The notes beneath the pieces are model-generated. The model searched no databases. It worked only from the letters and a program-made list of their open reading frames with translations, and had not been told where the DNA came from. From NCBI RefSeq assembly GCF_036429475.1, contig NZ_CP144125.1:1178001-1242000 (forward strand): a stretch of 64,000 bases of DNA, in the 5' to 3' direction. This DNA is from Halalkalicoccus sp. CGA53. GTDB taxonomy: Archaea; Halobacteriota; Halobacteria; Halobacteriales; Halalkalicoccaceae. How positions within the stretch are numbered: the first letter of the stretch is position 1; each line of letters starts with the position of its first letter. Of the stretch, positions 18,341 through 19,927 are shown in pieces. The translations under genes and the position numbers were made by a program.

Positions 18341-18524
18341 TCGGGTGGGCGGCTCCGATCCGGCTCCGATCATCGGGACTGTCGGTTCGCCACGGTCCGG
18401 TTCGCGGGTCCGAACGGGGAGCTCCGACCGTCGATCTCCGTCGTTACCGTCGGCCTCGACGCGACGAGGTGCTCGTCGGTCCGAGTGTGACGGGCTTATC
18501 TCCCTCTCGGCCCTCCCTTCGGCG

Positions 18525-19286
18525 ATGACCGTCGTCCTCTGTGGGATCGGCGCCGACTCGACGAACGTCGGCGAGCTCCCCCCGATCCGTTCGGACGGGA
18601 CGTTCGAGTACGTCCCGATCCCGGAGAAGTCCGAGACGACCGAGGAGCAGACCTTCGGGACGTGGCCGCTCTCGACGGGCGAGACGGCCGCGGACCTCAC
18701 CCCGTCGATCAGACCGCGACCGATCTCCGAACCGGAGTTCCGGACCGATCCCGAGACCTGGCCGCTGCACCACGACCCGAACTTCGGGGCGCTCACCTAC
18801 GGCGAGCACCGGCCCGCGTACGTCGACCGGCTCTCGCGGCTCGACCCCGGCGACCTCGTCGGCTTCTACGCCGGACTGCGCGACGAGGGCGCCAGAGCGC
18901 ATCGCTACCTGATCGGCTGGTTCTCGGTCGAGAACGTCCACCTGATCGACCCGGGCGACCGCGAGGCGGCGCGGCGAGCGTTCGCCGCCTGTCCGGAGAA
19001 CGCCCACGCCAAGCGTGCTCGCGAGGACGGCGAACCGTACGTCGACGACAGGCGACTCGCCATCGTCGAGGGTCGAGAGCCGGGCGGACTGGTCGAGCGA
19101 GATCCGCTCCGGCTGAGCGAGTACGCGGTCGCGCCCGGAAACTCCGTCGCGCAGTACTACCTCCGCGAATCGGTCCGCGAGGGGCTCTCGGTGGTCGAAG
19201 GTCGCGAGAACATGCAGTTCAAACCCGCCTACCGCTGTGACTGCTCGGCCGAGGAGTTCGCGGACCGGATCGAAGCCCTCCGGTAG
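18525..19286 (+). CDS. Nmad3-like protein (nucleotide modification associated domain 3)
   Basis: 253 residues from the ATG at 18525; a TATA-like GGCTTATCTCC about 25-35 bp upstream predicts a leaderless transcript. The pattern fits what I know of Nmad3: an N-terminal strand, then LPPIRSDGTFEYVPIP, then HHDPNFGALTYGE, then a GDLVGFYAGLR strand and a YLIGWFSVE strand. Nmad3 proteins are predicted nucleic-acid-associated proteins found near DNA or RNA base-modification genes. No modification enzyme lies beside this copy. The assignment is by pattern memory and could be wrong; without it the protein is a conserved cytosolic unknown. Confidence 0.5.
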   Translation: MTVVLCGIGADSTNVGELPPIRSDGTFEYVPIPEKSETTEEQTFGTWPLSTGETAADLTPSIRPRPISEPEFRTDPETWPLHHDPNFGALTYGEHRPAYVDRLSRLDPGDLVGFYAGLRDEGARAHRYLIGWFSVENVHLIDPGDREAARRAFAACPENAHAKRAREDGEPYVDDRRLAIVEGREPGGLVERDPLRLSEYAVAPGNSVAQYYLRESVREGLSVVEGRENMQFKPAYRCDCSAEEFADRIEALR

Positions 19287-19450: not shown

Positions 19451-19927
19451 ATGTCACTCGAAGGCGAGAACGCGCCCGATTTCACGCTCGAGAGCACCGC
19501 CGGCGACACGGTCACCCTCTCGGAGACGCTCGAAGACGGTCCGACGGTCGTGGTCGTCAACCGGGGCCACTGGTGTAGCTTCTGTGCCGAACAGCTGGGG
19601 ACGTTCAGCGAGGTAGCTTACGATCTCTGGTTCAACGATAGCGTGGATATCCTCCCCGTCGTGACCAGCCCGCTCGGAAAGGTCACCGAGATGCGCGACC
19701 GCTACGACCTCGGGATCCAACTGTTGGCAGACCCCGACGGTGAGGTCGCAGACCGGTACAGCGGAACCGAGGAGACGAGCCACGGCGTCACGGGAATCTC
19801 CGGGGTTTACGTGATCGATCCGGAGGGGCGGGTCCGCTACGAGCAAATCGCCGACGACGTCACCGACCGGACCTACGGGAACTGGGTCCGCTACTTCGTG
19901 CGCAACGACTTCCAGGACCCGTTCTGA
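19451..19927 (+). CDS. Peroxiredoxin-like AhpC/TSA family thiol protein
   Basis: 158 residues with a thioredoxin-like fold. The N-terminus NAPDFTLESTAGDTVTL is the classic start of AhpC/TSA proteins. The active site GHWCSFC carries Cys42 and Cys45, a CxxC pair of BCP/PrxQ or thioredoxin-like type. GVYVIDPEGRVRY is the family's later beta hairpin. Probable job: reduction of peroxides or protein disulfides. The AT-rich CTTCTTAAATGG about 30 bp upstream is a plausible TATA region. The stop codon is the left edge of family 1 repeat copy C. Confidence 0.8.
   Translation: MSLEGENAPDFTLESTAGDTVTLSETLEDGPTVVVVNRGHWCSFCAEQLGTFSEVAYDLWFNDSVDILPVVTSPLGKVTEMRDRYDLGIQLLADPDGEVADRYSGTEETSHGVTGISGVYVIDPEGRVRYEQIADDVTDRTYGNWVRYFVRNDFQDPF

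What the first reader, a model, noticed from the sequence alone, without database searches (positions are those of the whole stretch)
18525..19286. Isolated Nmad3-like protein
The pattern SDGTFEYVPIP...HHDPNFG...GDLVGFYAGLR...YLIGWFSVE fits what I recall of Nmad3, a domain linked to nucleic acid modification in phage and conflict systems. Here it stands alone in a housekeeping region, with its own predicted leaderless promoter.
Basis: inference. Interest (0 to 1): 0.5.

Follow-up and report, generated by a model that had tools for sequence, protein, structure and literature searches.

The report
Solitary haloarchaeal Nmad3, probable base reader
A salt-loving archaeon carries a conserved single-copy gene of the uncharacterised Nmad3 family, whose predicted shape and relatives suggest a protein that recognises chemically modified bases in DNA or RNA, probably an old antiviral sensor part that became a resident gene.

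Summary
The gene is real and the family call is right. Window 18525-19286 (+, 253 aa) matches Pfam Nmad3 (PF18754) end to end: 120 bits against a cut-off of 27, E 1.7e-34. It sits among housekeeping genes. A TATA-like box lies about 28 nt before the ATG and is positionally conserved in orthologues: 44 of 55 distinct upstream regions, controls 1 and 2 of 55.

It is not an oddity: 188 of 243 genomes of the order carry Nmad3, and 116 of 125 of the sister family, Natrialbaceae, carry this clade.

The new part is what it probably is. A confident AlphaFold model (pLDDT 95) resembles EVE, ASCH and YTH domains, the PUA-like readers of modified bases, but Z stays below 8 and no sequence profile confirms it. 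Accessory relatives lie in DISARM, BrxHII/methyltransferase and 7-deazaguanine-type loci, usually fused or adjacent to a second module (Nmad2, a new Nmad2-like family, or an unnamed C-terminal domain). The window copy has no such partner nearby. Best reading: a domesticated modified-base reader, not a base-modifying enzyme. Ligand and role are unknown. No phage relative was found in the collections scanned.

The parts
18525..19286 (+). Nmad3 (PF18754) protein, 253 aa, single domain, stop included
   Evidence: Pfam E 1.7e-34, residues 3-245 on profile 2-244 of 247; PHROG 34025 309 bits; AlphaFold pLDDT 95.1
18491..18502 (+). TATA-like promoter element (core CTTAT 18495-18499), about 28 nt before the ATG, so probably leaderless
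   Evidence: sequence; position conserved in 44 of 55 orthologue upstream regions, controls 1 and 2 of 55
18603..18626 (+). motif FEYVPIPE (residues 27-34)
   Evidence: F27, P31, I32 and P33 invariant in 51 aligned proteins
18768..18785 (+). motif HHDPNF (residues 82-87), candidate ligand-pocket residues (inference)
   Evidence: H82 and P85 invariant, D84 and F87 in at least 90% of 51
18849..18878 (+). motif GDLVGFYAGL (residues 109-118); resembles the GDxxxFY strand of EVE domains as recalled
   Evidence: F114 and Y115 invariant, G109, D110 and L118 in at least 90% of 51
18999..19016 (+). motif NAHAKR (residues 159-164), candidate pocket residues (inference)
   Evidence: N159, A160 and H161 in at least 90% of 51

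Best explanation
The gene encodes a stand-alone PUA-superfamily (EVE/YTH-like) module that binds one modified base, in DNA or RNA, in a pocket lined by the conserved F27, H82, D84, Y92, F114, Y115, N159 and H161. It reads the modification and does not make it. Mobile relatives serve as one half of a two-module specificity part in restriction-type antiviral systems. Shown here: family membership, purifying selection, conserved promoter position, near-universality in Natrialbaceae, and partner linkage of relatives. Predicted: the fold. Inferred: base binding, pocket residues, domestication, and the housekeeping role (marking self DNA, or reading a tRNA/rRNA modification).
For: Model pLDDT 95.1, pTM 0.92. 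Foldseek PDB: 11 of the top 12 rows are McrB N-domain, ASCH or MJECL36 chains, best E 7.3e-3. VIA-align: Z 7.4 (MJECL36), 7.0 (2eve), 6.9 (ZmASCH), 6.6 (THYN1 with 5mC DNA; VcaM4I); the 50 rows shown are chains titled or recalled as EVE, ASCH, YTH, McrB-N or similar, plus DrmA residues 13-120. PMC12458937 (passages) independently says class 1 DISARM helicases carry an N-terminal EVE-like domain. The partner Nmad2 also models as a YTH-like fold: best Z 7.7, all 50 rows YTH. Linkage of relatives: Nmad2 beside Nmad3 in L127, L129, L132, L134 and G350 and fused in L122, L146, L147. A new Nmad2-like family: 7 of 7 copies in 236 genomes lie 14-132 nt from an Nmad3 (hhalign prob 72%, E 3e-5 to Nmad2). 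Defence contexts: DrmA, B, C; MTase-BrxHII-Dcm backbone, in which Nmad3+C-domain and Nmad3-Nmad2 take the same slot in L133 and L147; DUF1156 MTase and SNF2 helicase; two TGT-family proteins; QueC. Conservation: 116 of 125 Natrialbaceae; dN/dS 0.19-0.26.
Against: No structural hit reaches Foldseek E 1e-3 or Z 8, below which the tool warns of merely common arrangements. No EVE, ASCH or YTH profile hits the protein at E up to 10. The family profile finds no PDB sequence relative. Nmad3 against Nmad2 gives hhalign prob 0.4% only, and against the Nmad2-like family 0.2%. The window copy has no partner beside it and no Nmad2 or Nmad2-like gene was found in its genome, so its function may differ from that of accessory relatives. 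Not all divergent relatives have a partner: L124, L054, L160 and L185 show none. No binding data exist.
Confidence: 0.55

Rival explanations
1. It is an enzyme on a PUA-like scaffold, such as an ASCH-type RNase or a nucleoside amidohydrolase (like YqfB on N4-acetylcytidine), or a hydrolase that clears modified nucleotides; H82, D84 and H161 would be catalytic.
For: ASCH enzymes are among the best structural matches and such activities are in print for ZmASCH and YqfB (titles and abstract starts). H82, D84, N159 and H161 are conserved polar residues.
Against: No enzyme family hit. The recalled YqfB Lys-Thr-Glu triad is not invariant here: no lysine is.
Confidence: 0.2
2. It makes or helps make a modified base, as the family name implies.
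For: Pfam name; Nmad3+C-domain relatives sit beside TGT-family and QueC genes.
Against: Those loci have their own modification enzymes. Nmad3 relatives also occur in loci where the recognisable modification enzymes are methyltransferases. No cofactor or catalytic family is detected.
Confidence: 0.12
3. It reads an RNA modification and serves translation or ribosome assembly, like the slow-evolving EVE class (a variant of the best explanation).
For: Bell 2020 (abstract passage) proposes two EVE classes, the slow one via 5mC in tRNA. In Natrialbaceae the gene often lies near adk, cmk and cbf5 (cbf5 within 10 kb in 22 of 67 haloarchaeal loci; names by position from L052).
Against: gyrA is a commoner neighbour (34 of 67). 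The gene has its own promoter, and the window neighbourhood differs (gltB).
Confidence: 0.1

Closest known systems
Pfam PF18754 Nmad3
   Same: full-length match well above cut-off, same invariant motifs
   Different: solitary haloarchaeal clade; no Nmad2 or other second module beside it, unlike most accessory relatives
EVE domain (PF01878; THYN1, VcaM4I, PSPTO5229)
   Same: predicted PUA-like barrel with EVE chains among the best matches, Z 6.6-7.4; same split into resident and defence-linked forms as described for EVE
   Different: no EVE profile match; 253 aa against about 145 in EVE; in the same 59 relatives Nmad3 is in 45 and EVE in 4
YTH and ASCH domains, McrB N-terminal readers
   Same: same superfamily among structural matches
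   Different: no sequence-profile match
Nmad2 (PF18753)
   Same: predicted PUA-like fold; fused or adjacent to Nmad3 in several genomes
   Different: different family (hhalign prob 0.4%); not found in this genome
PHROG 34025
   Same: 309 bits over the whole protein
   Different: unknown function; no viral relative in the collections scanned

Membership tests
Nmad3 (PF18754) | score above Pfam gathering cut-off over the full profile | tested here: met
   120 bits against 27, profile 2-244 of 247
Nmad3 (PF18754) | family invariant residues present | tested here: met
   D24, G25, F27, P31-P33, H82, P85, G93, F114, Y115 shared by all 51 aligned proteins
EVE (PF01878) | EVE profile match | tested here: not met
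   only Nmad3 listed at E up to 10
PUA-like superfamily (EVE, ASCH, YTH) | PUA-like barrel fold | tested here: inconclusive
   model pLDDT 95; best Z 7.4, below 8, but all 50 rows shown are of, or recalled as, this superfamily or DrmA's EVE-like region
PUA-like superfamily (EVE, ASCH, YTH) | binds a modified base | not testable with these tools
   needs a binding assay
PUA-like superfamily (EVE, ASCH, YTH) | conserved residues lie in the base pocket | not testable with these tools
Antiviral defence component | defence genes next to the window copy | tested here: not met
   eight flanking genes with Pfam hits are metabolic or general
Antiviral defence component | defence genes next to divergent Nmad3 relatives | tested here: met
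   DrmA, B, C beside L131; MTase, BrxHII and Dcm beside L133 and L147; DUF1156 MTase and SNF2 beside L146; TGT and DpdJ-like beside L150
Base-modifying enzyme | catalytic family or cofactor motif | tested here: not met
   no enzyme family in Pfam, NCBIfam or PADLOC; profile absence is not proof

The most novel reading that the evidence does not exclude
Nmad3 and Nmad2 are two halves of a previously unnamed PUA-like dual-reader specificity part used by several antiviral systems, and haloarchaea have domesticated the Nmad3 half as their main resident reader of a host base modification, giving Natrialbaceae and the window's genus an epigenetic or epitranscriptomic reader.
Probability: 0.3. Interest if true: 0.68.

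Novelty: new member of a known kind. Interest (0 to 1): 0.45.

Why it matters
Nmad3 and Nmad2 carry a name but no tested function, and no paper on them was found in the held library. If they are EVE/YTH-like readers, a family present in most haloarchaea gets a direct, cheap test: which modified base does it bind? It would also supply the missing recognition part of several DISARM-, BREX- and Dpd-like archaeal systems.

Tried and rejected
Phage origin: three viral or phage-collection queries with P0001 or A1 and one with a bacterial Nmad3 gave no relative; kept only as the PHROG hit.

Random or shadow frame: rejected by profile, orthologues and dN/dS.

Recent foreign gene: rejected, GC3 and orthologues are native.

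Sequence-level proof of a PUA relation: tried and failed. Foldseek against viral structures gave only weak ASCH and EVE rows, best E 1.5e-2.

Nmad2/Nmad3 co-occurrence in one bacterial phylum: each in 6 of 297 genomes, both in 2, one of them the centre that was chosen because it has both, so no statistical claim is made. In the order, Nmad2 is in 4 of 243 genomes: fused to Nmad3 in G218 and G128, on contig edges in G025, apart in G047.

The full careful tree did not finish; only a quick tree is used.

Full report
Observation. The reported frame is real. Window 18525-19286 (+) encodes 253 aa containing all quoted motifs. Pfam gives one family, Nmad3 (PF18754), E 1.7e-34, 120 bits against a cut-off of 27, over nearly the whole protein. 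PHROG 34025 (unknown function) scores 309 bits; NCBIfam and PADLOC give nothing. Base composition matches the four neighbours tested. The closest orthologues, L055 and L120, are in two Halococcaceae MAGs at 86-89% identity, and dN/dS of the window against each is 0.26 and 0.19.

Promoter. CTTAT lies at 18495-18499, about 28 nt before the ATG. Across 55 distinct upstream regions of the clade (rows up to L109 in which the start could be set at the MTVV-like motif, window included), a TATA-like word occurs in 44 at -45..-21 and in 1 and 2 in equal-sized control stretches. This supports a leaderless transcript, which was not measured.

Surroundings. Ten flanking frames were scanned with Pfam; eight gave families, all metabolic or general: HVO_0163-type HTH, glutamate synthase, alpha/beta hydrolase, AhpC/TSA, epimerase, DUF7260, Fe-ADH, BrkB-like. 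No defence gene is among them. The genome has one Nmad3 and no detected Nmad2 (in which no control genome rang; the same model did ring in 4 of 243 genomes and again not here).

Distribution. Nmad3 is in 45 of 59 relatives and 188 of 243 genomes of the order. With the window protein as query, 151 of 243 match at E 1e-5, and in the family of G016, 116 of 125 at E 1e-20. In the quick tree (the careful search did not finish) the window sits with the two Halococcaceae rows and next to Natrialbaceae. A second haloarchaeal clade and a bacterial/methanogen clade are separate. By comparison, EVE (PF01878) is in 4 of the same 59 relatives.

Fold. AlphaFold on a 51-row alignment of window and locus proteins gave pLDDT 95.1, pTM 0.92. 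Foldseek against PDB gave no E below 1e-3; of its top 12 rows 11 are McrB N-domain, ASCH or MJECL36 chains, and the other is an ATP sulfurylase. VIA-align rows run from Z 7.4 down, and the 50 shown are EVE, ASCH, YTH, McrB-N or similar chains (EVE identity of structural-genomics entries is recalled) plus DrmA residues 13-120. A 2025 preprint, PMC12458937 (passages seen), states that class 1 DISARM helicases carry an N-terminal EVE-like domain, which agrees with that unexpected row. Sequence methods do not confirm the relation, so fold membership is rated inconclusive.

Partners of relatives. Nmad2 (PF18753) lies directly upstream of Nmad3 in L127 and L129 (Pfam) and, by the same cluster, in L132 and L134, and in G350; L126 has a neighbour with a sub-threshold Nmad2 match. 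One frame holds both domains in L146, L147 and L122. A further family of about 297 aa (A5) has no Pfam match but aligns to Nmad2 by profile (prob 72%, E 3.3e-5). All 7 copies found in 236 genomes lie 14-132 nt from an Nmad3, six on the same strand. A third module, the C-domain of A6, is fused to Nmad3 in L053, L128, L133 and L150 and is a separate neighbour gene in L131 and L154. The Nmad2 model (pLDDT 82.6) matches YTH domains best (Z 7.7; 50 of 50 rows YTH); its Foldseek list mixes ASCH and EVE with ATP sulfurylase. Divergent Nmad3 genes without a visible partner also exist: L124, L054, L160, L185 and others.

Defence settings of relatives. L131: DrmA, DrmB, DrmC, then C-domain and Nmad3. 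L133 and L147: MmeI/Eco57I-type MTase, BrxHII-like helicase and 5mC MTase 48-60% identical between the two, with Nmad3+C-domain in one and Nmad3-Nmad2 in the other, in the same slot between MTase and helicase and the same orientation, two further frames lying in that slot in L133. L146: DUF1156 MTase and SNF2 helicase. Bell 2020 (PMC7641849, passages) reports stand-alone EVE proteins with a COG1743-DUF499-helicase system in archaea; whether the L146 MTase is COG1743 is recalled, not tested. L150: two TGT-family proteins, DUF6884, NucS-like protein and DpdJ-like helicase, reminiscent of the haloarchaeal BRIGADE systems of PMC12458937, not proven to be one. L053: QueC and a deoxyribosyltransferase/PfkB protein.

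Interpretation. Bell 2020 describes two EVE classes, slow-evolving and fast-evolving, with resident operons for the former and defence links elsewhere (abstract and body passages). Nmad3 in haloarchaea shows a similar split. The most economical reading is that Nmad3 is a PUA-like reader, that mobile forms work with a second reader-like module as a specificity part, and that the window clade is a resident, partnerless form. Base binding, the pocket and the cellular role are inferences.

Known or new. The gene is an ordinary member of a known, uncharacterised family. Searches for Nmad3, Nmad2, PF18754 and related words in the held library found no functional or structural study of either. The paper recalled as the source of the Nmad names is not held, so a PUA-like assignment may already be in print there. 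Other papers seen only as passages: PMC13092281 (an unspecified Nmad domain in predicted defence) and PMC11846954 (Nmad5 in phages).

Noticed in passing
alignments A4 and A6 (L129, L132, L174, L053, L128, L150, L154 and others): Nmad2 proteins and the Nmad3 C-domain proteins end in a conserved cysteine (SSC or GC): 8 of 11 Nmad2 rows (one of the other three runs off its contig) and 5 of 6 C-domain rows. The window protein does not.
   Followed up: partly
L155, L156, L157, L158, L116, L119 and G071, G169, G206: An unnamed family of about 297 aa, profile-similar to Nmad2, found beside Nmad3 in all 7 copies seen in 236 genomes.
   Followed up: yes
L150:2606-15302: Locus with two TGT-family proteins, DUF6884, HATPase, NucS-like and DpdJ-like helicase around an Nmad3+C-domain gene; possibly a BRIGADE-type 7-deazaguanine system.
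   Followed up: partly
G000 C1:159296-159688 (-): The same genome has one EVE-domain hit (29.8 bits) inside a 1286-codon open frame.
   Followed up: no
G586 C1:472478-473241: Natrialbaceae genome in which the Nmad3 gene is split in two frames, a likely pseudogene or sequencing error.
   Followed up: no
window:19415-19451: The downstream peroxiredoxin gene (19451-19927) also has a TATA-like CTTAAAT about 30 nt before its ATG.
   Followed up: no
L110, L111, L112: In some haloarchaeal MAGs the Nmad3 gene follows what look like lysine-biosynthesis genes (dapD-like by recall) on the same strand.
   Followed up: no
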